Shown: piece by piece, positions 2,571 through 51,096 of the stretch
How positions within the stretch are numbered: position 1 is the stretch's first letter
Layout: every line of letters starts with the position of its first letter
From: an uncultured Rhodopila sp.
GTDB taxonomy: Bacteria; Pseudomonadota; Alphaproteobacteria; Acetobacterales; Acetobacteraceae
Reading direction: 5' to 3'
Assembly (NCBI RefSeq): GCF_903915725.1
Contig: NZ_CAIWTY010000026.1
Coordinates: 1 to 64,000, forward strand
DNA: 64,000 nt
Notes under the pieces: generated by a model
Database searches by the model: none
Told to the model about the DNA's origin: nothing
The model's input: only the letters and a program-made list of their open reading frames with translations
Position numbers and translations under genes: made by a program

Positions 2571-3059
2571 TCAGCCGGCGTCGCCGCAGCCCTCGGCCAG
2601 CGCGGCGACCACCGGCCAGCCGACAAGACCGGCCGGGTCCAGTTGCTTCAGCGCATCGAGTTTCCGCTGTGCCGCGGCACGGCGATCCTGCCGGAGGTGG
2701 ATGAAAGCAAGCGCCTTCAAGGTATACAGGGCGAACCGCGCCGCCCCGTGCGGCTCCGCCGCCGGTTTCGTCCAGGTCTGCCAGTCAGCCGCCCATCCGG
2801 CCTGGCGCGCGGCTTCGGCAAGGCCCGCTTCGGCGGCGTCCTGAGCCTGGTCCAGATTCCCAAGATATGTGTGGATCTTGTAGAGACAGAAATACACCGG
2901 AAGCTGTCCCGGCGCCGTCTCCAGCGCCTGGCGGAACAACTCACCGGCCCCGGCAGAGTCGGTGCGGTACGCGACGACGCCCTGTTGCAGCAGCGCGTTG
3001 ATCTGTTGCGGAACGTCGCCGAAATTGATGACGTCCGAATCTGGCCAAGCATCCTTCAT
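2571..3059 (-). CDS. TPR-like hypothetical protein
   Basis: The 162-residue protein starts at an internal ATG (MKDAWPDSDVINFGD); the longer reading frame upstream looks non-coding. It has helix-turn-helix repeats of tetratricopeptide type: AGELFRQALETAPGQLPVYF, a second repeat around GNLDQAQDAAEAGLAEA, and a third around RFALYTLKALAFIHLRQDR. It has no signal peptide or membrane segment. It lies divergently, 152 bases from a [2Fe-2S] ferredoxin gene, so the two may share a control region. As far as I recall, this pairing is also found near nitrogen-fixation genes in related bacteria, but no nif gene is visible here. Function unknown; a scaffold or maturation role is inference. Confidence 0.7.
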   Translation of the reverse strand: MKDAWPDSDVINFGDVPQQINALLQQGVVAYRTDSAGAGELFRQALETAPGQLPVYFCLYKIHTYLGNLDQAQDAAEAGLAEAARQAGWAADWQTWTKPAAEPHGAARFALYTLKALAFIHLRQDRRAAAQRKLDALKQLDPAGLVGWPVVAALAEGCGDAG

Positions 3060-3211
3060 GACGAAGCGCGTAGCAAACGCCGCGCCAGGACGGTTCCCGG
3101 CAGAAGTCCTGCGGTTTGTCGGATTCCGTGTCGCAAAGCCGACAGTTGCCGGCCGATCGGCGTGGTCCCGGGATTGCATGGACCCGGCGACCTCATCAGG
3201 GACGGCACACT

Positions 3212-3550
3212 ATGGACTCCGGCTACGACATTCCCCAGCTCTACAAGCGTCATGTCTTCGCCTGCTACACGCAGCGCCCGCCCGCCCATCCGCGCGGCAG
3301 TTGCGGCGCCATCGGCGCGCTGCCCTTGTGGGAACGTCTCGGCAAACGTCTCGAAGCCGAGCACATGCCGGAGATCGGGTATACCGCTTCGGGCTGCCTG
3401 GGGTTTTGCAGCGCCGGGCCGGTGATGGTGATTTATCCGGAGGGGATCTGGTACCGGCCAACAACCGCGGATGACATCGATGAAATTATCGAGCAGCACA
3501 TCAAGCAGGGGAAACTGGTGGAGCGGCTGGTGATGGTGTTCGCGAAATGA
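3212..3550 (+). CDS. Thioredoxin-like [2Fe-2S] ferredoxin
   Basis: The 112-residue protein belongs to the thioredoxin-fold [2Fe-2S] ferredoxins. The cluster-binding pattern is visible: a first Cys in HVFACYTQRPP, a second in HPRGSCGAIG, and a pair in the loop SGCLGFCSAGPVMVIYPEG. The following YPEGIWYR and the C-terminal IIEQHIKQGKLVERLV are family hallmarks. The start at 3212 is chosen because homology begins there and AGGGA lies about ten bases upstream; upstream in-frame codons are low-complexity. It probably carries single electrons in the cytoplasm to an unknown partner. It is divergent from the TPR-like gene. Confidence 0.85.
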   Translation: MDSGYDIPQLYKRHVFACYTQRPPAHPRGSCGAIGALPLWERLGKRLEAEHMPEIGYTASGCLGFCSAGPVMVIYPEGIWYRPTTADDIDEIIEQHIKQGKLVERLVMVFAK

Positions 3551-3911
3551 TCGCGCACGACAGTCGATAATCGTTTCTCAGGCACCGGGCGCTGCGGTAA
3601 CGGTCCGGGGAAGCGCCTCGGTCCGTGTGGCCTCGGCATAAAGCCAGTTGTGACACGGATTAAAGGGATCAAGCCACGGATTGCAGGGACGTGGTCGCGG
3701 CGCATGAAGCGCCCGATCAGCCGAAGGTGCGGTCCTACCCCGGGCATTCGACGCTGCGGTCTCGCGCCAATATTTGTCATCGCCCGGGCAGATCGTCCGG
3801 TCTCAGGCAAAGCCCGACCCACCGCCGAGTCACCGCAACACCCGGAGTGCGCGCCAGCCCCCGATGTGCCATTCCAGGCGGCCGTAAGCGCGCCACGCCC
3901 GGAGACCCCGC
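3551..3911. other. Intergenic stretch, nothing certain
   Basis: These 361 bases separate the ferredoxin from the oxygenase gene. Neither strand has a frame with a start, a ribosome-binding site and family similarity. A minus-strand frame around 3580-3790 reads through without stops but lacks a start codon and GC-biased third positions. No terminator or repeat stands out. Confidence 0.5.
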
Positions 3912-4625
3912 ATGAACGACCTCGCCCCGCAACGCGTCGCCGATCAGGACTGGATTCGTATCGAAGCCGATCTGGATGCCGATGGCTACGCGGTGATCGG
4001 GCCGCTGCTGACGCAAGCCGAGTGCGCAACCCTCAGCGCCGGCTTCGATACCGAGCCCACATTCCGCAACCGCGTCGTCATGGCCCGCCACGGATACGGC
4101 GCCGGGGAATACCGCTATTATGCCTACCCGCTGCCGGGGCTGATCGAAACCCTGCGCACCGCGCTCTATGCCCGCCTCGCACCGATCGCCAACCGCTGGC
4201 AGTCCGCGCTCGGCCGCCCGGCGGTGTTCCCGGCCAGCCACGCCGCCTACCTCGACCAATGCCACGCCGCCGGACAGACCCGCCCGACGCCGCTGCTGCT
4301 GCGCTACGGAGCAGGCGACTATAACCGCTTGCACCAGGACCTTTACGGCGAGCTGTGCTTCCCGCTCCAGGCGGCGTTCCTGCTCGACCGTCCGGGGGAC
4401 GACTTCGAGGGCGGCGAATTCCTGCTGACCGAACAGCGGCCACGGATGCAGACCCGGGCGGAGGTAGTGCCGCTGCGGCAGGGGCAGGGCGTGATCTTCG
4501 CCGTCAGCCAGCGTCCTGCGCCCGGCCCGCGCGGGTTCTCGCGGGTGACGATGCGGCATGGCGTCAGCCGGGTGCGGTCGGGCCACAGGCATACGCTGGG
4601 GGTAATTTTCCACGACGCGAAATGA
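3912..4625 (+). CDS. 2-oxoglutarate/Fe(II)-dependent oxygenase
   Basis: The 237-residue protein matches the small 2OG-Fe(II) oxygenases with a prolyl-hydroxylase-like double-stranded beta-helix. The metal triad is visible: H141 and D143 in RLHQDLYGE, and the distal His most likely H216 in MRHGVSRVRSG. A basic residue for 2-oxoglutarate lies in the RSGHRHTLG segment. Middle motifs LLRYGAGDYNRLHQD and GGEFLLTEQRPR are typical of the subfamily sometimes found next to ada-type DNA-alkylation repair genes. No such gene is next to it here. Substrate unknown. The start follows homology; a Shine-Dalgarno sequence is weak. Confidence 0.85.
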   Translation: MNDLAPQRVADQDWIRIEADLDADGYAVIGPLLTQAECATLSAGFDTEPTFRNRVVMARHGYGAGEYRYYAYPLPGLIETLRTALYARLAPIANRWQSALGRPAVFPASHAAYLDQCHAAGQTRPTPLLLRYGAGDYNRLHQDLYGELCFPLQAAFLLDRPGDDFEGGEFLLTEQRPRMQTRAEVVPLRQGQGVIFAVSQRPAPGPRGFSRVTMRHGVSRVRSGHRHTLGVIFHDAK

Positions 4626-4699
4626 CACCGGCAGCGGTCACGCCTGCCTCCCGGCGAGGGAAGCAGCTTCTGGCATTCAGGTTCCACCCGGCCTGGCGC

Positions 4700-5755
4700 T
4701 CAGTGATCCGCCGCCGCCGCCCGCGGGTCCGCGCCGCGCGCCCACTCGTTGACCAGGGTAAAGCCAATCCCCAGCAGCACCGGCCCGAGAAAGATACCCA
4801 GCAAGCCGAACGCCAGCGCACCGCCAAGCACCCCCAATATCGTCAGCAGGAACGGCAGTTGCGCGCCGCGAGAGATGAACCAGGGACGGATCAGGCTGTC
4901 CGAGCCGGAAATCGCCCCGGCGCCGTAGATCGCCAGGAAAATGCCCCAGCCCATATGGCCGCTGCTCATCAGCCAGAGCGAGGCGGGTATCCAGACCACC
5001 GGCGCGCCGATGGGCAGCACCGACAGAAATCCGGCGATGCCGGCCAGCAGCACCGGCCGCGGCACGCCCGAAATCCACAGGCCGAACGCGGTCAGCAGGC
5101 CCTGGACGATGGCCGTGCCAAGGATGCCATAAACCACGCCGCGGACCGTCGCGCCGGTGACCGTGATCAGCCGCTCGGCCTGCATCCCGGCGATGCGGTG
5201 CAGAATCAGCCGGAGCCTCGCGGCAATCGGCTCACCATAGACATAGAAGAAGAAGGCGATGAACAGCGCCAGCAGGAACATCACCACGCCGTTGGCGATG
5301 CCAAGCAGAAGGCTGAGGCCGTTTTCCAGGACAATGCCGAAATACGGATGCAGCGCGTCCAGCATCACGCTGATATCGGCGGCCCAGCGGTCCCACAGAT
5401 CGCCGACGGTCGGACCGACCAGCGGGATGTCGAACACCCAGGACGGCGCATTCGGCAGGCCGGCGCGCAAACCGTCCATCACGATATGGCGCAGATTCGT
5501 CACGTCATCGGCACTGCCGGGAGCGGCGACGCCGATGGGCAGCACCAGGATGACGGCGGTCAGGGCGACCATCAGCAGCGCTGCTCCGACCGGGTGCAGC
5601 CCCAGGCGCTCGCGGAACGTCTCGAACACCGGCCAGGTCGTATAGACCAGAATGCCCGCCCATAGCAGGGCGGACATGAACGGATACAGCACCAGGATGC
5701 AGCCGACAGCCACTCCGCCCAGCAGCAGTCCCATCAGGATCCGTTCGGCGACCAT
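4700..5755 (-). CDS. AI-2E family transporter
   Basis: The 351-residue polytopic inner-membrane protein has about seven to eight hydrophobic segments in the AI-2E exporter/PerM layout. An N-terminal pair of helices (LMGLLLGGVAVGCILVLYPF and a following one) is followed by a soluble helical stretch, then LFIAFFFYVYGE and the conserved pore region GFLSVLPIGAPVVWIPA. The last helices are LGVLGGALAFGLLGIFLGPV. The ATG at 5753-5755 has a strong AAGGAG four bases upstream; the open frame further upstream runs through a tandem repeat and is not coding. These proteins export small molecules or cations; the substrate cannot be told. The gene is divergent from hyi. Confidence 0.88.
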   Translation of the reverse strand: MVAERILMGLLLGGVAVGCILVLYPFMSALLWAGILVYTTWPVFETFRERLGLHPVGAALLMVALTAVILVLPIGVAAPGSADDVTNLRHIVMDGLRAGLPNAPSWVFDIPLVGPTVGDLWDRWAADISVMLDALHPYFGIVLENGLSLLLGIANGVVMFLLALFIAFFFYVYGEPIAARLRLILHRIAGMQAERLITVTGATVRGVVYGILGTAIVQGLLTAFGLWISGVPRPVLLAGIAGFLSVLPIGAPVVWIPASLWLMSSGHMGWGIFLAIYGAGAISGSDSLIRPWFISRGAQLPFLLTILGVLGGALAFGLLGIFLGPVLLGIGFTLVNEWARGADPRAAAADH

Positions 5756-5787
5756 GGTTCTCCTTCCGCGGGTGATCCGGTTCGGCC

Positions 5788-5876
5788 ACTGGCCCGCACA
5801 CTGGCCCATTCCACTGGCCCAGCCGACTGGCCCAGCCGACTGGCCCAGCCCACTGGCCCAACCCACTGGCCAAGCC
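5788..5876. repeat. 13-bp tandem repeat in divergent promoter region
   Basis: About seven consecutive copies of a 13-base unit, ACTGGCCCAGCC plus one variable base, occur between the divergently transcribed transporter (start 5755) and hyi (start 6032). The first unit is 12 bases and the last is degenerate. The period is not a multiple of three, which argues against coding. It may be a slippage-prone array or a cluster of protein-binding sites. Confidence 0.85.
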
Positions 5877-6031
5877 GCGTGACCGATTGTAGCGTCCGCC
5901 CCGGTCGATACCCGCGCTTCGACGGGGGCAAAGACCAGTCGTTGCGTGTTTCGGACAAGCAGACAAGGGGCATGCCCTTGCAGCCCGGGCGACCGGTGGT
6001 TCAGTCCGGGCGGAAACACAGGAGGTCGATC

Positions 6032-7938: not shown

Positions 7939-8829
7939 ATGTCGATGCGATTCACCGAAATCGGCCAGCAGCTCAGGGCTTACCGCCTGGAGTCAGGATT
8001 GCGTGCCGAGGAGATCGCCGCCCGGCTGGGCGTCTCCCGCGCTGCTCTCTATCGCTATGAAAAGGGCGAGGTTATCAAGCTCGACACCATCAAGCGGCTG
8101 GCGGAGCTGTTGAAGATATCCCCCTTGTCGCTGTTGGGCATCGGGGTCGAGTACTACAACCGCCCTATCGGCTATTTCGAACGCATCCGGCAGATCGAGG
8201 AGACGGCGGATCAGATCCTGCAGTTGGCCGGGCCGCTGTGTTATCTGACCACGTCGGATGCCTACGACTCGGCGCTGGCCGAGGCTTTCGACGAAACCGC
8301 GGATCAGAGCGGATCAGAGCGGATGGCGATGCGCAGCATGGCCGAGCAGGTCATGGGCATCCTGGCCGCACGCAAGCGGATGTATGCGATGCGGCGCCCG
8401 ACGATTATTGCGATGATCTCTCTGCCTGCGGTGCAGCGGCTGATCGATGTCGGCATCGTCACCGGGATGCATGTCTCCGAACGGGTCCGCCGCATTTGCC
8501 ATGACGTCGCCCTGGCGGAGGTGGAGAACATTGCAACTCTGATGGAAGCCGAGCCGATGGGCCTGCAGTTCGGGCTGATGGCCGGATCGCCGCCGAGTTC
8601 GTTCTTCAAGATCCTGCGGGCGCGCGACCGGGTCAGCCTGGCGATCAACCCGTTCCGCACCGACACCCACCCCGGGGGTCAGACCGGCGTCGCGATGATT
8701 ACCGGCGCCGATGAAGCCATCGCCGCGCATCAGCGGGTGGCCGAGTCGAGCTGGCGCGAAGCCATCAAGGGCCCGGCGGGCGCGGCGCGTTTGCGCCAAA
8801 TGATGAACATGGCAACCGCTGTGGCTTAG
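7939..8829 (+). CDS. XRE-family transcriptional regulator
   Basis: The 296-residue cytoplasmic regulator has an N-terminal Cro/CI-type helix-turn-helix at about residues 8-62 (IGQQLRAYRLESGLRAEEI, ARLGVSRAALYRYEKGE). The rest is a ~220-residue effector-like domain that I do not recognise at family level. Two ATG codons six bases apart (7939, 7945) could start it. A ten-base tandem duplication at about 8301-8325 encodes the in-frame segment ADQSGSER. It follows hyi-glxR by 201 bases on the same strand, so control of glyoxylate metabolism is possible but unproven. A leader with weak promoter-like AT-rich sequence separates it from glxR. Confidence 0.8.
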   Translation: MSMRFTEIGQQLRAYRLESGLRAEEIAARLGVSRAALYRYEKGEVIKLDTIKRLAELLKISPLSLLGIGVEYYNRPIGYFERIRQIEETADQILQLAGPLCYLTTSDAYDSALAEAFDETADQSGSERMAMRSMAEQVMGILAARKRMYAMRRPTIIAMISLPAVQRLIDVGIVTGMHVSERVRRICHDVALAEVENIATLMEAEPMGLQFGLMAGSPPSSFFKILRARDRVSLAINPFRTDTHPGGQTGVAMITGADEAIAAHQRVAESSWREAIKGPAGAARLRQMMNMATAVA

Positions 8830-8970
8830 GTTGGTCGAGGGGGGGCAGTTGCGGCTGAGGATGGCTTGGCCGCTACGCGCCAGGCGCGGGAGCCGATGCG
8901 TGCATCAAGCTTTGCTTCGCCGTGATGCTTGGCTATACGAACTCGTCTCAGATGCCGCGGGTTCTTGAAA

Positions 8971-11589
8971 ATGCGTGACGGGCACTGGATCGCCGGGCTC
9001 TGGCGACCTGTCGGGGTTGCGGTCCGGCTGGTTCGGGATTCCAGGGGCGGAGCGGCCGTTCCCCTTAACGGGACGCTGATTGGCGATTCCGGTCAGCGCG
9101 ATTCGTCCCGCGACCAGGCGCAGAAGATGGAGTCGCTGGGCCGGTTGACCGGCGGCGTCGCACATGATTTCAACAATCTGCTGACCGTCGTGCTGGGCAA
9201 CGCCACGGCGCTGAGGATCAACGCGGAAGCTCGCGGCGATGCCGAGGGCATTCGGCGCGCCGAGATGATCGAGCGCGCGGCGGAGCGCGGCGGACGGTTG
9301 GCCGGCCAGTTGCTGGCGTTCTCCCGCAACCAGATGCTGAGGCCGGAAACTACATCGGTCTATCAGGTGATCTCGGCGATGCACGAGTTGCTGAGCCAGG
9401 CGGCGGGCGAATCGGTGCAGGTACTATTGTTGGCCGAACCCGATCTGTGGACCTGCCACGTCGACCCGCGGCAGTTGGAATCAGCGATCCTGAACCTGGT
9501 GCTGAACGCGCGGGATGCGATGCCGGGGGGTGGCAGCGTCGAGATCTCCTGCCATAACCAGCCGGCCAAGGCCCGCCGCGGGCGCGCGGCACCCCAACAT
9601 GTGGGCGACACGGTTCGGATCGATGTCACCGACGTCGGCAGCGGCATCGCACCGGAATTGATCGACAAAGTCTTCGAACCGTTTTTCACCACCAAGCCGA
9701 TCGGCAAGGGAAGCGGGCTGGGTTTGGCTCAGGTGCATGGCTTTGCGGGTCAGTCGGGCGGCTGGGTCGAGTTGCGCAGCATCGCCGGCACCGGCACGAC
9801 GGTTTCGCTGTTCCTGCCTCGCGCGACGGGACGCCAGGCGCAACTGTTTGCGCCGGTGGCGGCGCTCGATCACGCCGGCAACAATCAGACCGTTCTGATC
9901 GTCGAGCCCAACCCGGATTTGCGAGCAACGATTTGCGACATCCTGACGCAGTCCGGCTACCGCGGGCTGCCGGCGGCGGACGCCGCCGGAGCGTTGGCGT
10001 ATCTCGTGTCGGATGAACGCATCCAGGTCCTGCTGACGGAATCGCACTTGCCGGGCGGCGTGCGCGGCGCCGATCTGGCGCGCAGCGCCCGCCAGATGCT
10101 GCCGGACATTCGCGCCCTGGTCACATCGAGCGCCCCGGACGAGGCCATCCGTTCCGCCCAGACGAACGATGCAGTCTACGAATTCCTCAGAAAGCCCTTC
10201 CGGGCGGCGGACCTCGTGCGCGTCATCGGCGGGATGCTGAAAACCGGAACGTTTTCGGTGGAAACGGAACGGATACTGGCGGATGTGCGCGACACGGAGT
10301 TCGTGGCGGCGGCGGATGCGGATGCCTCCGGCGAGGACAGCCCACCTGCCAGCCGATCGGCCGGAGCGGCGCGATGTGAGGCGGGCGCCTTAAGCGGCAA
10401 CGCGATTCGCATCGGGATCATGCCGTTCAAGACCACGCGATCGGCCAGCGAAAGCGCGTTCTCGCTCGGGTTGGCGGAAGAGATTACCAAGGCGTTCGCG
10501 AGGTTTCGCGGCATCACCTGTGTTACGTCGGCATCGATCGCAGCCCTGGCCGGCGAGTCCCCGGGAAAGACCGAACGCTGGCGGCAGCTCGATCTCGACT
10601 TCCTGCTCGACGGCAGCCTGCGCCGCAAAGGCGGCGAGATCGGCGTCCTGGTGCGCCTGGTCAACATGCGCGGTTCCGGCGAGATCACCTGGCGGCGGCG
10701 CTTCGGCGGGACCATCTCCGATGTGCTGAACCTGCAGGACCAGATCGCGGCGGAAACCGCCGCCCAGGTCGTGCCGCAGGCGCTGGTCTGGGAAGGGCGG
10801 GAGGCTGCGTCCCGGCCGCAGGTCGATCCGACGGCGTACGATCTGATGCTGCGGGCCATTCCGGCGGTCTATTGCCTGGAACAGGCCGGATTTCAGGAGG
10901 CTGCCCGCATGCTGGAGCGGTCGCTGGAACTGGACCCGAGCAGCGCTGCGTGCCGCTCGTGGCTGGCGCACTGGTATCATCATTCCGTCGGTCAGGGCTG
11001 GGAAGCAGATCCGGCCAGAGCCATCGAGCGCGCCGATCGGCTGGCGCAAGAGGCGGTTCTGCTCGACCCCGAGGATGCCCGGGCGTTTGCCGTGGCCGGT
11101 CACGTCCGGGCGTTTCTGCACAAGGATTCGCAGGCCGCGCTTTGGTTGCACAAGCGGGCAATCGAGCTGAACCCCAGCCTCGCGCTCGCCTGGTGCTATT
11201 GCGGACTTGCCCACACCTATCTGGGCCAGCATGCCGAGGCGATCCGTCATATCGAACACGCCCGGCATTTGTCCCCGTATGACCCGCACGGGTTCTTTTT
11301 CGAGATGGCGCTGATGTTGCCGTTTTTGCTGACCGGCCAATACGAAGTCGCCGCCCGGCTCGGACGGCATGCGCGGGAAGCGCATCCCGGCTTTTCTTCG
11401 ACTTACAAGGCGTTGCTGTCCGCCCTGGGGCATCTGCATGCCGGCCGGGAGGCCGCGGTCACACTCAAGGAACTGTTGAAGCTGGAACCGAAATTTTCAT
11501 TGCGGGAAGCGCGGAGCCGCTCCCCGCTGCTGCTGCCGGCGGACCTCGATCGTTACATTGAAGGACTGAGGCGCGCCGGCGTTACCTGA
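8971..11589 (+). CDS. Hybrid histidine kinase/receiver fused to TolB-like and TPR domains
   Basis: The protein has about 872 residues if the ATG at 8971 is used; a TTG at 8929 is an alternative. Almost no sensor region precedes the kinase. HisKA has H65 in GGVAHDFNNLL. The N-box contains N179 (LNLVLNARDAMPGG) and the G2 box is GKGSGLGLAQVHG. A receiver follows, but it is degenerate: the expected phospho-Asp is Glu (E357 in LLTESHLPGG) and the acidic pair reads VEPNPD; the conserved Lys (K408, LRKPF) is kept. From about residue 477 comes a TolB-like segment (IRIGIMPF) of the kind found in adenylate-cyclase-associated proteins. C-terminal TPR repeats follow (AIELNPSLALAWCYCGLAHT). No cyclase domain is visible. 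Confidence 0.82.
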   Translation: MRDGHWIAGLWRPVGVAVRLVRDSRGGAAVPLNGTLIGDSGQRDSSRDQAQKMESLGRLTGGVAHDFNNLLTVVLGNATALRINAEARGDAEGIRRAEMIERAAERGGRLAGQLLAFSRNQMLRPETTSVYQVISAMHELLSQAAGESVQVLLLAEPDLWTCHVDPRQLESAILNLVLNARDAMPGGGSVEISCHNQPAKARRGRAAPQHVGDTVRIDVTDVGSGIAPELIDKVFEPFFTTKPIGKGSGLGLAQVHGFAGQSGGWVELRSIAGTGTTVSLFLPRATGRQAQLFAPVAALDHAGNNQTVLIVEPNPDLRATICDILTQSGYRGLPAADAAGALAYLVSDERIQVLLTESHLPGGVRGADLARSARQMLPDIRALVTSSAPDEAIRSAQTNDAVYEFLRKPFRAADLVRVIGGMLKTGTFSVETERILADVRDTEFVAAADADASGEDSPPASRSAGAARCEAGALSGNAIRIGIMPFKTTRSASESAFSLGLAEEITKAFARFRGITCVTSASIAALAGESPGKTERWRQLDLDFLLDGSLRRKGGEIGVLVRLVNMRGSGEITWRRRFGGTISDVLNLQDQIAAETAAQVVPQALVWEGREAASRPQVDPTAYDLMLRAIPAVYCLEQAGFQEAARMLERSLELDPSSAACRSWLAHWYHHSVGQGWEADPARAIERADRLAQEAVLLDPEDARAFAVAGHVRAFLHKDSQAALWLHKRAIELNPSLALAWCYCGLAHTYLGQHAEAIRHIEHARHLSPYDPHGFFFEMALMLPFLLTGQYEVAARLGRHAREAHPGFSSTYKALLSALGHLHAGREAAVTLKELLKLEPKFSLREARSRSPLLLPADLDRYIEGLRRAGVT

Positions 11590-11604
11590 ACTTTCAGCGC
11601 CCGG

Positions 11605-12405
11605 CTATGATGTCTCCATCAGCTGCGCCTCCGCGCTTGCGGTGTGGGCGGGGCAGCCGCCGAGGCGGCGCTTGCGCACGGCGACCGCATAGGCGCCGAA
11701 CGGCCGATCGGGATCTTCGCTGGGGATGGCGATGGTGCGTTCGTAGGCGCGCCATTCCGTTTCCGTCATCGAGGCCATGTCGGGCGTGAATGCGGTCGCG
11801 TTGAGCGTCTGTTCGGCATAGGCGATGCGCGGTATCGGCTGCACCTGGATGATCGGGAAGTCGCTGTTGAAGTGGACCGGCCGGTTCATCTGGGTCAGGC
11901 GGAAGTTGGTGATCAGCGGGCCGAACCAGCGGTCGGTTTCGACCAGTCCGTCGAAGATCGAATATCCGCCGGGCAGCGGCAGATTTGCCGGTGCGCGCAC
12001 CAGGGCGCTCCAGTTCTCCGCGGTGCGCACCATCAGTCCGGTCCACATCTGCACGAGGCCGGGTTCAGGCATGACGGTCAGGAACGGCGGTGCGCAGCCG
12101 GCCAGATAGTCCGGCGCCGCGGCATCGAAGGTTTTTGAGAAGCCGGGAAACTGGGCTGCCGGTGCGAGCAGCATCCAGTCCTCGGCGCCGTCGTAGTACC
12201 AGTAGACATCGGTGCCGTCCCAGAGCAACTGGAGGTCCATCGGCGGAAATACCCACCAGCCGAATCCGGTCGCGCTCGTTGCTGCTTCACAGTAACGATA
12301 TGCCCTGGTCGGAAGCGTACCTGCAGCAGATCGATCTGCCCGCTGGGGTGGACGGGCGCGTTCGATCAGGCGATTGATTTCCAGCACGGCGCCGTTATGC
12401 GTCAT
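11605..12405 (-). CDS. DUF6065-like protein of unknown function
   Basis: The 266-residue protein has no signal peptide or membrane segment. Aromatic-rich motifs match what I recall of the DUF6065 family: GFGWWVFPPMDLQLLWDGTD near residue 47, and DGLVETDRWFGPLITNFRLT followed by FNSDFPIIQVQPIP near the middle. The C-terminus carries EWRAYERT and a late Cys (GGCPAH). The ATG has GGAG eight to nine bases upstream. It lies 75 bases downstream of a small repeat-peptide gene on the same strand and ends convergently with the kinase gene, so these two genes form an isolated unit. Function is not known; action on the peptide is inference from context only. Confidence 0.75.
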   Translation of the reverse strand: MTHNGAVLEINRLIERARPPQRADRSAAGTLPTRAYRYCEAATSATGFGWWVFPPMDLQLLWDGTDVYWYYDGAEDWMLLAPAAQFPGFSKTFDAAAPDYLAGCAPPFLTVMPEPGLVQMWTGLMVRTAENWSALVRAPANLPLPGGYSIFDGLVETDRWFGPLITNFRLTQMNRPVHFNSDFPIIQVQPIPRIAYAEQTLNATAFTPDMASMTETEWRAYERTIAIPSEDPDRPFGAYAVAVRKRRLGGCPAHTASAEAQLMETS

Positions 12406-12480
12406 GTTGCATTACTCCACGTCGACAATTCGCATTAACGCCGGGCAAGGAACCCGAATTAGAACTTTCAGTTCGAACAG

Positions 12481-12702
12481 TCAGCGTCTGTGCGTAGCCG
12501 GGATACGGCAACCGGACCCGAAACGAATGCGGCCGGTGTCGGCGGTGTCGGCGAGTGCCGCGGGCCGCGGCAGGCGGCAGCCGGAGCCGAAACGAATGCG
12601 GCCGGTGTCGGCGTTGTTTGAAGAAACCGGGCGCGGAAGAGAGTTAACTGTTCCTGTGGTTGAGAGCAACGAAGCGTTAGCGGCGGAAATGGAAGTGGTC
12701 AT
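12481..12702 (-). CDS. Small peptide with duplicated 15-residue segment (possible precursor peptide)
   Basis: The 73-residue frame starts with ATG at 12700-12702, with the purine-rich GAAAGGG about eight bases upstream. The first ~30 residues are Ser/Thr/Ala-rich with no repeat. After that ADTGRIRFGSGCR occurs twice, 23 residues apart, followed by LP in the first copy and IP in the second. Each copy has one Cys. The two DNA copies differ in this frame only at synonymous third positions plus one Leu/Ile exchange. In the opposite-strand frame the same changes alter Asp/Glu and Ile/Arg. This pattern supports translation of the minus strand. The gene precedes the DUF6065-like gene by 75 bases. 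Leader-plus-repeated-core organisation suggests a modified peptide precursor; this is not proven. Confidence 0.6.
   Translation of the reverse strand: MTTSISAANASLLSTTGTVNSLPRPVSSNNADTGRIRFGSGCRLPRPAALADTADTGRIRFGSGCRIPATHRR
12506..12613. repeat. Direct repeat, 39 bp, period 69
   Basis: Copies at 12506-12544 and 12575-12613 differ at two positions. The 69-base period equals 23 codons and encodes the duplicated segment of the minus-strand peptide gene. Confidence 0.9.
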
Positions 12703-13126
12703 CAGGAGGCCCTTTCAAGTTCGACCTGTTTTTCTTAGCGGGGCAAAACAGCGATTGCAACAACTTTTCACACGAGTTTGTGATCACTCTATGTTTCGGC
12801 CGGTATTGCAAGGGAAGACCGTGATTATGTCGGCGGGTTTAATTTTATTGTAAACGTAATACTTCACGAGGAAACAAGGCGCAATTTCACCATTATTTAG
12901 TCGATACAACACATTTGTTACGAATTGCTGGTGCCCGGCCAATCGTGGCTGTCACACCGTATCGCCGCAGGCTGTCCGTGCCGGGGTCAGTTACTGAAAA
13001 ATACTGACCTTGACTCCTCACAACTCCGTCATCCTCCCGGCTGGCAGGCCGCTGCTTGGGGAAAGCTGCTTCGCTGCGGCAAGTCCGCCGCGGCCGCCCG
13101 GGCGACCGGCGGGCGGCGGGATCGGG
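12703..13126. other. AT-rich leader and intergenic stretch
   Basis: The first ~230 bases (12703-12930) are clearly AT-richer than the surroundings. They contain runs such as TTTAATTTTATTGTAAACG and form the upstream region of the minus-strand peptide gene, so a promoter is likely there. A small dyad (GGTCAGT at 12985-12991 with ACTGACC at 13003-13009) lies in the second half. No gene is convincing on either strand. Confidence 0.5.
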
Positions 13127-14383
13127 CTAGGTCGCCTGGCTTGCGGCCCGCAGGCGCGGGCGGCGAACCACCATCAGCGGGACCAGAACCAGGACCAGGG
13201 CCGTCGCGGCCGCGGATAAGACGATCAGCGGGGCAATCTGCCGATTGAATACGTGCTCGTAGAGCACCGACCCGGTCGTGTCCGCCAGTGGCGTCGCCAG
13301 GTTGATGATCGACATCAGGCCGGCAAAGGCAAACCCCTCGGCGCCCTGCGGGCAGGCTTCGGCCGCCAGCGACAGCGTGGCAATCATCGCGATCATCCCG
13401 GCCACGCCGCTGAGCAGCCAGATCGTTACCGCGGAGGCCGGTCCGTCCAGCAGCAGGTAGGATAGCGTCGTCATCACGCCGCCGATGATGCTCAGGCGCA
13501 GCAGCGCCGGCTGGCTCAGGCGGTGCAGTTGCCATTTGTAGAGCACACCGCCGAGGATCCAGCCGCCCGCGCTGATCGACGACAGCACGCCGATGAAGCC
13601 TTGCGAGAAGCCAAGCCGATCGGTCATTTCGAAGTAGAGCGGCGTGCCGAAGCCGGGGGAGAAGTAGTACAGGAACAGGAAACCGGCGGCCAGCCACAGG
13701 TTGCGGCTGCGGAACGCCGACAATAGCGCGGCGAGGCGGGCGCGCAACGCGGGCAGGTCGATGCGGGCGCGGTCCTCATGGATCAGCCAGACGCTGCAGA
13801 CGACCGAGAGCGGGGCGGCGGCCGCGATCCAGGCGGCGGCGTGCAGGGCGGCCGCGGGGGGCAGGATCTCGATCAGGTAGCCGGCCAGCAGCACCGCCGC
13901 CATTTGCGCGATGTTGTAAAACAGCCATTGCTGATTCACCAGGCCGGGGCTGGCGTCGTGCCTCTGGCCCGTCTCCACCAGCAGCGCGCCGCACAGCGTG
14001 CTGGAGACCGCCATGGCGAACGAGGTTGCGGTGATCGCCGGGATCAACGCCGCCGGGGTGTCCAGCGTCGCCACGCGGGCGAAGGCCAGCACGGCGGCGA
14101 TGTTCGCGAGCACCAGATACGGGCGGCGGCGGAAGCCGAACAGCGGCACGAAGTCGGAGATCGCGCCCCAGAGTGGCTTGATCACCCAGGGCAGATCGAA
14201 GATCGCGAGCGAGACGCTGATCTTGACGGCGTCCCAGCCCTGGGTCTCTTTCAGGAAGTAGGTCAGCGGCTGCCAGACGATGCCGGATTTGGCCTGGCCG
14301 ATGCCCTCCACGGCATAGACGATGGCGAAGAACCACATCACGCGGCTGACGGTCCGGCTCTGCGGGGGCTGGGCTGGGGGCAT
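13127..14383 (-). CDS. MFS transporter, folate-biopterin transporter-like
   Basis: The ~418-residue inner-membrane protein has about twelve hydrophobic helices. The early conserved motif FAIVYAVEGIGQ, the loop KSGIVWQPLTYFLKE and the first-half cytoplasmic signature PLWGAISDFVPLFGFRRRPY match the BT1/folate-biopterin branch of the major facilitator superfamily. A mid-protein motif, SPGFGTPLYFEMTDRLGFS, is also typical of that branch. The start is uncertain: an in-frame codon 36 bases upstream exists and no strong ribosome-binding site is seen. The substrate is unknown; family members carry pterins, folates or other organic anions. It stands alone, divergent from the nitroreductase gene 138 bases away. 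Confidence 0.8.
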   Translation of the reverse strand: MPPAQPPQSRTVSRVMWFFAIVYAVEGIGQAKSGIVWQPLTYFLKETQGWDAVKISVSLAIFDLPWVIKPLWGAISDFVPLFGFRRRPYLVLANIAAVLAFARVATLDTPAALIPAITATSFAMAVSSTLCGALLVETGQRHDASPGLVNQQWLFYNIAQMAAVLLAGYLIEILPPAAALHAAAWIAAAAPLSVVCSVWLIHEDRARIDLPALRARLAALLSAFRSRNLWLAAGFLFLYYFSPGFGTPLYFEMTDRLGFSQGFIGVLSSISAGGWILGGVLYKWQLHRLSQPALLRLSIIGGVMTTLSYLLLDGPASAVTIWLLSGVAGMIAMIATLSLAAEACPQGAEGFAFAGLMSIINLATPLADTTGSVLYEHVFNRQIAPLIVLSAAATALVLVLVPLMVVRRPRLRAASQAT

Positions 14384-14521
14384 CTGGCATCCAGTGGGGG
14401 CTGCGTCGGGTGCCCGCAAGCCATGGCGGGTCGAGCCTTCCAGAAGTTGAGCGATGCTGCAACGCGGCGATTGGCGAAGTGACCCGGCGTGCCTACCTTT
14501 AGCGGTGACAGGAGAGTCGTG

Positions 14522-19050: not shown

Positions 19051-19093
19051 TTAACGCAGATGAACGCGGATGAACGCAGATGAACGCGGATAA
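19051..19093. repeat. Left inverted repeat flanking the GxxExxY gene
   Basis: Four near-tandem units of GAACGCRGAT occupy 19051-19093 and end in AA. The reverse complement recurs at 19483-19515 after the gene. The GxxExxY start codon lies inside this repeat, so the repeat supplies the first codons. Confidence 0.85.
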
Positions 19094-19482: not shown

Positions 19483-19515
19483 TTTATCTGCGTTCATCTG
19501 CGTTCATCCGCGTTT
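19483..19515. repeat. Right inverted repeat flanking the GxxExxY gene
   Basis: The words TTTATCTGCG, TTCATCTGCG and TTCATCCGCG form the reverse complement of the repeat at 19051-19093. Together they bracket the GxxExxY gene as a ~465-base unit. Confidence 0.85.
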
Positions 19516-28452: not shown

Positions 28453-28557
28453 GGAAACACAAATGAACACGAATGAACACAAATAAAAATTACCCTGGCA
28501 CGGAGTCCGAAATTCAGATCGGTTCATTCGTGTTCATTTGTGTTCATTTGCGTTTCC
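28453..28557. repeat. Inverted-repeat element without gene
   Basis: Arms 28453-28487 and 28522-28557 are imperfect reverse complements made of GAACACRAAT units, with a 34-base loop. Unit length and layout match the repeats flanking the GxxExxY gene at 19051-19515. Base composition is far more AT-rich than the surroundings. The remaining bases up to 28690 hold nothing I recognise. Confidence 0.75.
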
Positions 28558-49449: not shown

Positions 49450-51096
49450 CTATTCCCGTCCGCCGCTGCGCAACTCCGAGTAAACCCGCTCACTGAAATG
49501 ATCCAGCGCTGCCACTTTCATGTCTGCCGGGATTTTTCCGTCCGCCTCAACAATCGGGCAGTAGGCGATCGTCAGGCTGTTGACGATATCTGCCTGATTC
49601 GCTTGCGGCACCGCGGCCTTCACAGTGGCAACGACTTTTTCCGCCGTCTGCAACACGGTGTCCACCGTCATCGCTTGCAGCGCATCGGTGACGCCGCTCC
49701 TCGGATCATTGATTACCGTCGCCAGGTCCGGCTGCACGACTTTGGGACATTGCCCGTTCGGTCCGATGCTCATCGCGGTGAACGATTTCGGCCGCAGAAT
49801 ACCGACATCCCCGGGACCGGCGTTCGGCGGCGCCTCGTTGCCCCAGGATTGGCGAAGGTAGTTCGTTACATCCGCGATCTGCTGGTCGGTCATGCCGGCG
49901 CCGACGGCGGGCATCGGCGCGTAACTGCCCTGCGCCTCGATCCCGCCGAGAATGACGCGAATGACGTCGTCCGGCCCGTCCGCCAGCACCGCGCCGTTGT
50001 CCGCCAGCGACGGCACCGAGCCCTTGATGCCCGCGCCGTTAAGCTGATGACATGACGCGCAATTGTTCAGGTACACCTGCCGCCCGAGCGGTCGGCGTCC
50101 GATGAAGGCAGTTCTCTCGGCGCTGACATAGCTCGGCTCCGCCGGCGTGGATTTTAGATAGGCAACGATCGCATGCAGGTCCGCGTCGGTCAGCTTGCGC
50201 AAGCTTTCGTGAATCGTTTCGGCCATCGGCCCTGTCGCCACACCCATCCCGGGCGAAACGCCCGTCTTAAGGAACGCAAAGACCTGGTCATCCGTATACT
50301 TCCCGATCCCGTCCCGTATATCCGACGTTATATTCGGCGCATACCAGTGCTCGATCGGCCCGCCACGCAGCGCTTCCGCCCACGGCGTATCGCCGAGCAG
50401 GTTGCGGCCGTTATGGCACTCACCGCAATGCCCGAGGCCCTCGACGATATAGGCGCCGCGGTTGATCTCCGCCGATTTCGACGGATCGGGCTGGAAGGTG
50501 CCCTGGCGCAGGAACAGATCGTCCCACACGGTCAAACCAGCGCGAATATTGAACGGGAACGCCAGCTTGCTGGGCTTTCGCGGCGCATGCACCGGCTGCA
50601 ACGAGAACAAATACGCCTTGATGGCGAGAACATCGTCGCGCGTAACCTTGGTATACCACGGATACGGCATCACCGGGTAAAGGTGCTCCCCGTTCGGACC
50701 GATGCCCGCGTGCAGCACGCGATAGAACTGATCGTCTGTCAGGTTGCCGATGCCGGTTTCCTTGTCAGGGGTAATATTCGGCGTGGAGATCGGGCCAAAC
50801 GGCGTCGGCATGTAGCGGCCGCCGGCGAATTTCGCTCCGTCATGCGCCGTGTGGCACGACGCGCAATCGCCCAGATCGGCCAGATACTCGCCGCGCGAGA
50901 CCGAATCTTGACCGGACTGATCCGGAGCCGCATGGATCGGCGCTGCCAGGACCGGCAGCAGCAGGACCGGCAGCAACAGCACCGGCAGCAACAGCACCGG
51001 CAGCAACAGCACCGGCAGCAACAGCACCGGCAAAAAACTCGCGATCCGCAACGACGATCGGGCACGCCCCGCCTTCTCAGCCTCCCGATCAGCCAT
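49450..51096 (-). CDS. Three-haem cytochrome c, dehydrogenase subunit type
   Basis: The 548-residue exported protein carries three c-type haem sites: C78-H82 (CASCH), C224-H228 (CGECH) and C346-H350 (CASCH). This is the layout of the cytochrome subunit of membrane alcohol, gluconate or sorbitol dehydrogenases of acetic acid bacteria (LADLGDCASCHTAHDG, GLGHCGECHNGRNLLG, LNNCASCHQLNGAGI). About 100 residues at the C-terminus extend past the usual end. The signal peptide core is five tandem copies of LPVLL. The ATG at 51094-51096 has GGGAGA five bases upstream. No dehydrogenase catalytic subunit adjoins, so its electron donor is unknown. Confidence 0.9.
   Translation of the reverse strand: MADREAEKAGRARSSLRIASFLPVLLLPVLLLPVLLLPVLLLPVLLLPVLAAPIHAAPDQSGQDSVSRGEYLADLGDCASCHTAHDGAKFAGGRYMPTPFGPISTPNITPDKETGIGNLTDDQFYRVLHAGIGPNGEHLYPVMPYPWYTKVTRDDVLAIKAYLFSLQPVHAPRKPSKLAFPFNIRAGLTVWDDLFLRQGTFQPDPSKSAEINRGAYIVEGLGHCGECHNGRNLLGDTPWAEALRGGPIEHWYAPNITSDIRDGIGKYTDDQVFAFLKTGVSPGMGVATGPMAETIHESLRKLTDADLHAIVAYLKSTPAEPSYVSAERTAFIGRRPLGRQVYLNNCASCHQLNGAGIKGSVPSLADNGAVLADGPDDVIRVILGGIEAQGSYAPMPAVGAGMTDQQIADVTNYLRQSWGNEAPPNAGPGDVGILRPKSFTAMSIGPNGQCPKVVQPDLATVINDPRSGVTDALQAMTVDTVLQTAEKVVATVKAAVPQANQADIVNSLTIAYCPIVEADGKIPADMKVAALDHFSERVYSELRSGGRE
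50950..51033. repeat. 15-bp tandem repeat inside cytochrome signal peptide
   Basis: About five copies of a unit like CAGCAACAGCACCGG encode LPVLL repeats on the minus strand. The three central copies are identical. Copy-number change would keep the frame and alter signal length. Confidence 0.9.

What the first reader, a model, noticed from the sequence alone, without database searches (positions are those of the whole stretch)
11605..12702. Two-gene unit: duplicated-core small peptide plus DUF6065-like protein
Seen: a 73-residue minus-strand frame has a non-repetitive N-terminal ~30 residues, then two copies of ADTGRIRFGSGCR + (L/I)P at a 23-residue period, each with one Cys. The DNA copies differ in this frame only at synonymous third positions and one Leu/Ile change, which indicates selection on the peptide; in the opposite frame the changes are not conservative. 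The DUF6065-like gene follows by 75 bases, and nothing else shares the unit. Known: leader plus repeated core next to an enzyme-like gene is typical of ribosomally made, modified peptides. Inference: the DUF6065-like protein may modify, bind or process the peptide.
Basis: partly seen in the sequence, partly recalled or inferred. Interest (0 to 1): 0.78.

Follow-up and report, generated by a model that had tools for sequence, protein, structure and literature searches.

The report
Tandem-repeat peptide paired with DUF6065
The small gene makes a peptide that repeats one short motif, and in many related bacteria such peptides sit just before a gene of unknown function, which points to an undescribed peptide-making or peptide-signalling system.

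Summary
The 73-residue peptide (12481-12702, minus) carries two near-identical cores 23 residues apart and lies 75 nt before a DUF6065-like gene (11605-12405). It belongs to a large unnamed family. Of 114 assessable loci of this DUF6065 subfamily, 91 have a matching core on the same strand within 700 nt upstream, against 0 of 253 control genes. Of 22 assessable loci not used to build the motif, 21 have it. Copy number runs from 1 to 18, and core type follows the DUF6065 tree. Canonical DUF6065 genes lack it (0 of 18). The constant part is D-x-G-[K/R]-[V/I]-x-[L/F]-G-[G/A/S]; cysteine is incidental (10 of 91 loci). A TPR regulator, always on the opposite strand, lies near 51 of 81 loci. The DUF6065-like protein models as a dUTPase-like fold without recognisable dUTPase sequence. 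Best reading: a leaderless multi-core precursor plus a partner that acts on each repeat (RiPP-like). The pairing is shown; modification, export and signalling are inferred. I found no description in the library searched.

The parts
12481..12702 (-). 73-aa repeat peptide gene (ATG 12702, TGA 12481-12483)
   Evidence: 17 homologues; alignment A1; dN/dS 0.22-0.35
12613..12702 (-). non-repetitive N-terminal 30 residues; conserved as MTTS.S..NAS only among close homologues
   Evidence: A1; other clades have different N-termini by eye
12568..12612 (-). core copy 1, ADTGRIRFGSGCRLP
12499..12543 (-). core copy 2, ADTGRIRFGSGCRIP
12406..12480 (-). 75-nt gap between peptide and DUF6065-like gene; no terminator-like site found in 11550-13150
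11605..12405 (-). DUF6065-like gene, 266 aa, peptide-linked subfamily; AlphaFold model with dUTPase-like fold
   Evidence: PF19541 42.7 bits (cut-off 26.6), residues 116-209; model pLDDT 80.6, pTM 0.79
8929..11589 (+). TPR regulator, 886 aa: HisKA-HATPase-response regulator fused to a C-terminal TPR region; tail to tail with DUF6065. Its C-terminal family recurs near 51 of 81 loci
13127..14419 (-). MFS/BT1-family transporter upstream on the same strand; candidate exporter, in the close clade only
   Evidence: of the 81 neighbourhoods found only in the window and L133-L136

Best explanation
A two-gene cassette: a ribosomally made, effectively leaderless precursor of 1-18 tandem cores, and a DUF6065-like partner with a dUTPase-like fold that recognises the constant part of each repeat (D-x-G-[KR]-[VI]-x-[LF]-G-[GAS]) and acts on the repeat or its variable tail (such as CRLP, GFRLP, FAPTL, MSPAF), as the enzyme of a multi-core RiPP pathway would. 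The TPR regulator on the opposite strand probably controls or senses the output, and in some lineages an MFS protein exports the product. Shown: the genes, selection on the peptide, tight linkage across many genomes, core type that follows the partner's tree, copy-number variation. Inferred: physical recognition, chemistry, export, sensing.
For: Core motif upstream of 91 of 114 assessable subfamily genes against 0 of 253 control genes (class assignment); held-out 21 of 22. Internal repeats at score >= 19 in 57 of 110 loci with at least 350 nt upstream, against 0 of 258 controls; at the looser score 16, 59 of 110 against 7 of 258. Canonical DUF6065: 0 of 18. Core type follows the DUF6065 tree: 20 changes against 51.6 for shuffled labels, as low in 0 of 200. 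Cores in one peptide are on average 86% identical, between loci 49%, so copies are homogenised as in multi-copy precursors. Other families of the class, not in the training set: L240 and L241 with LGNMSPAF repeats, L242 with KLGMMAPAF repeats; Rhizobium with three D[AD]GxVHIANKSPxF copies, DUF6065 16 nt on, and in SRDI969 an annotated MFS gene overlapping DUF6065 by 4 nt. One single-member metagenome protein, P0060, carries a core (score 13.9) and DUF6065 in one chain.
Against: No known peptide-modifying domain; the fold resembles nucleotide hydrolases. I recognised no peptidase and no universal exporter among the 22 most recurrent neighbour families listed, judged mostly by eye. Conserved positions of the core include no invariant Cys, Ser or Thr. 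10 of 114 subfamily loci, including four of Elioraea, show no peptide. AlphaFold of P0060 left the core disordered (pLDDT under 50).
Confidence: 0.5

Rival explanations
1. Peptide signalling module: the repeats are a multi-copy pro-pheromone, cut into short peptides that the TPR regulator binds; DUF6065 matures or buffers the peptide. It works like RRNPP systems (recalled), with a different regulator head.
For: The TPR regulator family lies near 51 of 81 loci, always on the opposite strand; in the window's genome the two best of five regulator matches lie beside the two subfamily genes. Its head varies (BTAD in L173, histidine kinase-receiver in the window) while the C-terminal part is kept.
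Against: 12 of 45 loci with at least 2.6 kb on both sides lack it; none is annotated within 9 kb in Rhizobium WSM4643. Export and import of the peptide were not examined.
Confidence: 0.25
2. The peptide is not a substrate but a binding partner: each repeat docks on the DUF6065 protein, as an inhibitor, a trans-acting arm or a scaffold that gathers several copies.
For: dUTPase-like fold; the constant half of the repeat is what is conserved; copy number varies without loss of the motif. Single-copy forms are common (26 of 91).
Against: High copy numbers with variable tails suit a product better than a docking site; resemblance of the core to the dUTPase C-terminal motif is not above background.
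Confidence: 0.2
3. The small frame is a regulatory leader whose translation controls the DUF6065 gene, or an unrelated tandem repeat.
For: It lies upstream on the same strand, 2-383 nt from the expected gene start in the 91 loci.
Against: Selection acts on amino acids; one motif recurs with very different copy numbers and spacings; no terminator-like site and no Rfam match in the window.
Confidence: 0.05

Closest known systems
Multi-core microviridin precursor AMdnA with ATP-grasp ligase AMdnC (PMC5934393; abstract and passages seen)
   Same: One small precursor holds several similar cores next to a single processing protein; that paper calls several cores per precursor rare in RiPPs.
   Different: Microviridin has a recognised leader motif and an ATP-grasp enzyme; here no leader is shared between clades, there are up to 18 cores and a dUTPase-like partner.
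Cyanobactins, cyclotides, orbitides, ustiloxins, phomopsins (named in a passage of the same paper)
   Same: Several cores in one precursor; cyanobactin repeats carry their own recognition sequences (recalled).
   Different: Their enzymes were not seen in the gene pair; the nine library searches turned up no RiPP pathway with DUF6065.
dUTPase fold family (PF00692)
   Different: Pfam finds only DUF6065; profile comparison with dUTPases of related genomes scores no better than shuffled columns.
RRNPP peptide-receptor systems (recalled)
   Same: TPR receptor beside a small peptide gene.
   Different: The two regulators scanned have BTAD or histidine kinase-receiver heads; the peptide is tandemly repeated and tied to DUF6065.

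Membership tests
DUF6065 (PF19541) | match above the curated cut-off | tested here: met
   42.7 bits against 26.6, but over residues 116-209 only; profile comparison with canonical members E 2.2e-34
RiPP | gene-encoded precursor peptide under selection | tested here: met
RiPP | precursor linked to a dedicated partner gene | tested here: met
RiPP | leader or recognition sequence | tested here: inconclusive
   no leader shared across clades by eye; a constant half in each repeat could serve
RiPP | post-translational modification of the core | not testable with these tools
   needs mass spectrometry
RiPP | known modifying, protease or export gene nearby | tested here: inconclusive
   no peptidase recognised by eye among the 22 recurrent neighbour families listed; MFS in Rhizobium, in the window clade and upstream of L192/L211
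dUTPase | dUTPase fold | tested here: inconclusive
dUTPase | PF00692 match / dUTPase sequence profile | tested here: not met
   no PF00692 match at E <= 1; hhalign score 18.5 against a maximum of 25.5 in 60 shuffles
RRNPP | HTH-TPR receptor adjacent to its peptide | tested here: inconclusive
   TPR part present, but only two regulators were scanned; their heads are BTAD and histidine kinase-receiver

The most novel reading that the evidence does not exclude
A new class of bacterial peptide natural product or pheromone: leaderless precursors with up to 18 tandem cores, each carrying its own recognition half, matured by a repurposed dUTPase-fold protein (DUF6065) and read out by a dedicated TPR regulator. 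Paralogous cassettes in one genome carry different core types.
Probability: 0.4. Interest if true: 0.88.

Novelty: new variant of a known kind. Interest (0 to 1): 0.74.

Why it matters
It gives DUF6065, a family of unknown function, a partner and a testable role, and it exposes a peptide family for which no Pfam or NCBIfam model reached its cut-off in the members scanned. If the DUF6065-like protein modifies the repeats, it would be a new enzyme fold in RiPP chemistry with built-in multiplicity, of use for making several copies of a product from one gene. If it is a pheromone system, it would extend TPR-based peptide sensing to these Alphaproteobacteria.

Tried and rejected
Cys-based chemistry as the unifying feature: rejected, Cys occurs in a core of 10 of 91 loci.

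Canonical DUF6065 as a partner of such peptides: rejected, 0 of 18 loci by motif; repeat frames flagged there (L014/L060 and L009/L088) are low-complexity and unrelated by eye. Six remote relatives (L243-L248): 0 of 6.

dUTPase homology by sequence: not shown. A first profile of canonical DUF6065 was built from wrong-strand frames and was replaced. The resemblance of the core to the dUTPase C-terminal motif was tested and is not above background.

AlphaFold of P0060 (core and DUF6065 in one chain) to see docking: uninformative. Defence library: no hit for peptide or DUF6065-like protein; phrog_37827 touches 12 residues of the peptide at E 9e-4 and phrog_7084 the protein at E 0.008, not followed. 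Phage records: no match by tblastn, although 11 uncharacterised viral models, most of uncultured phages, match the fold at E <= 0.001, ahead of viral dUTPases. Rfam: none. Transporter as a general third gene: MFS proteins of the window clade, L211 and Rhizobium are not detectably related by BLAST.

Literature: nine answered searches, for DUF6065, Rhodopila with repeats, multi-core RiPPs, RiPP with dUTPase, TPR and pheromone terms, SARP, genome mining, beta-clip, listed no paper that I took to concern this pair; of the few papers listed I opened one.

Full report
What is there. On the minus strand, 12702-12481 encodes 73 residues with two copies of ADTGRIRFGSGCR(L/I)P 23 residues apart, followed after 75 nt by a 266-aa gene, 12405-11605, which matches Pfam DUF6065 above its cut-off over residues 116-209. 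No Pfam or NCBIfam model matches the peptide at E <= 1. The peptide frame is real: 17 homologues at E <= 1, and dN/dS of 0.30 and 0.22 for the window peptide against two other genomes and 0.35 between those two. The two other sense-strand frames give values of 1.0 or more in all three pairs; one antisense frame is also below 1 (0.33-0.51), the other two are 0.99 or more.

How general it is. All 33 genomes of the window's genus that were searched, the own genome included, have at least one DUF6065 match, among 50 of 98 relatives searched. With a profile of the peptide-linked subfamily, 97 of 299 genomes of the family match at E <= 1e-40; in the class, 4 genomes other than the window's own match strongly (three of one genus and one other) and 6 weakly, of 385. 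I collected 118 distinct subfamily loci. A 14-position motif matrix built from the loci with at least two seed matches scores 14 or more in a frame ending between -700 and +60 of the expected DUF6065 start in 91 of 118 loci, and in 0 of 253 upstream regions of other long ORFs in the same loci (maximum 11.0). Of the other 27, four are cut by contig ends (L037, L062, L095, L147), one (L155) has the motif in a frame not closed before the gene, twelve have divergent cores recognised by eye (L035, L041, L053, L080, L087, L092, L106, L107, L113, L119, L182, L205), and ten show none (L050, L121, L189, L191, L192, L196, L197, L207, L208, L211). An earlier count by internal repeats alone gave 57 of 110 against 0 of 258; in three of the 57 (L075, L080, L086) the best-scoring frame was a wrong one beside the right one.

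Held-out test. The matrix was trained on that set, so I scored 42 further loci that I picked from the lists and. Nineteen had the same DNA as training loci and were dropped; of the remaining 23 one is cut short (L274); of 22, 21 score 14 or more and the last (L292) has a divergent core by eye. One of them, L298, has 17 cores. These loci are still relatives of the training set. Canonical, full-length DUF6065 genes have no such motif within about 1.5 kb on either strand (0 of 18).

Anatomy of the repeat. Across the 91 loci, weighted by locus, position 8 Gly is 100%, Val/Ile at position 5 99%, Asp at position 1 92%, Lys/Arg at position 4 89%, Leu/Phe at position 7 86%. The seed pattern asked for some of these, so the figures are favoured by the search. 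The residues that follow vary by clade: xRLP-like types (55 loci), xAPxL-like types (28 loci), 8 others. Copy number is 1 in 26 loci, 2 in 30, and up to 18. Cores within a peptide are on average 86% identical (65 peptides with two or more), between loci 49%. N-terminal parts differ between clades by eye. Cys is found in a core of 10 of 91 loci only.

Linkage by descent. On a quick tree of 117 DUF6065-like proteins (SH-aLRT support, 36 of 114 inner branches starred) the five peptide classes need 20 changes against 51.6 for shuffled labels (0 of 200 as low). Shuffles ask only for clustering. L038 was labelled AP by a pattern but reads GGGFRPA. Both copies in the window's genome have a peptide: the second, L033, has one core in a frame ending 9 nt before the expected start of the gene.

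Distant case. Rhizobium sp. WSM4643 carries on a plasmid a DUF6065 gene (38.6% identity) 16 nt after an annotated 83-aa hypothetical protein that contains three copies of D[AD]GxVHIANKSPxF; in SRDI969, where the peptide gene is annotated longer but holds the same 83 residues, the next gene is an MFS transporter overlapping DUF6065 by 4 nt. In WSM4643 two hypothetical proteins are annotated in that place. The two loci are nearly identical (peptide 100%, DUF6065 99.6%), so they count once.

Third component. Clustering of neighbours within 10 kb in 81 loci (80 found loci and the window) showed, after DUF6065 itself, one family in 48 loci; the next (27) holds antisense frames of DUF6065, and the one after that is in 16. 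By tblastn the regulator is near 51 of 81 loci, in all 51 on the strand opposite to DUF6065, 35 upstream and 16 downstream; two lie farther off (L212 4.4 kb, L169 9.2 kb). Of 45 loci with at least 2.6 kb on both sides, 33 have it. The C-terminal half is a TPR region; the head is BTAD in L173 and histidine kinase plus receiver in the window, and the kinase motif HDFNN is seen in five of the regulators. Loci are related, so the orientation count is not 51 independent events.

Interpretation. The number of repeats, their homogenisation, their fixed half and variable half, and the close pairing with one protein fit a multi-core precursor and a partner that acts on each repeat. PMC5934393 (abstract and passages) says several cores per precursor were known in a handful of RiPP families. 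What is lacking is a leader, a known enzyme, and a constant exporter or protease. The TPR regulator allows a signalling reading, which does not exclude the first. A binding or scaffold role is the main alternative. Only mass spectrometry and binding tests can decide.

Noticed in passing
L304:8679-9711 (Rhizobium sp. WSM4643 plasmid) and L305 (SRDI969): Fully sequenced Rhizobium isolates from pea carry the repeat peptide and DUF6065 in a row, in SRDI969 followed by an MFS gene; a convenient test host.
   Followed up: partly
L306:3977-4684 (Sinorhizobium medicae ml49 plasmid pMl1): A distant DUF6065 gene (25.5% identity to the Rhizobium protein) sits among a methyltransferase, an amidohydrolase, an aldo/keto reductase-like frame (by eye), an S8 peptidase and a 105-aa small protein; no repeat peptide seen in 3000-6010. 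It may be another peptide or small-molecule cluster.
   Followed up: no
protein P0060 (345 aa): A single metagenome protein reads through from a core (ADSGRICFGA) into a DUF6065-like domain; it may be a natural fusion or a lost stop.
   Followed up: partly
L054, L057, L064, L068, L100, L104 (14-18 cores); L047, L066, L175, L293 (runs of N): AP-type peptides reach 14-18 cores, and some assemblies have runs of N inside the repeats, so true copy numbers are probably higher in places.
   Followed up: no
L193:10805-11594 and similar loci (9 of 81): A secreted protein that looks like a GDSL/SGNH hydrolase (by eye, not scanned) follows DUF6065 by 46 nt in L193 and recurs in 9 loci of one AP clade; a YeiH-like membrane protein (by eye) recurs in 16 of 81 loci.
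   Followed up: no
window 7939-8829 +: HTH-type regulator next to the TPR kinase, found in place also in four close relatives (L133-L136).
   Followed up: no
window 50947-51032: A 15-nt tandem repeat encodes LLLPV units in the signal-like region of a cytochrome-like protein; ordinary low complexity.
   Followed up: yes
window 19053-19091, 19486-19514, 28456-28484, 28522-28554: Short 10-nt tandem repeats (AACGCAGATG and similar) in four places; not examined.
   Followed up: no
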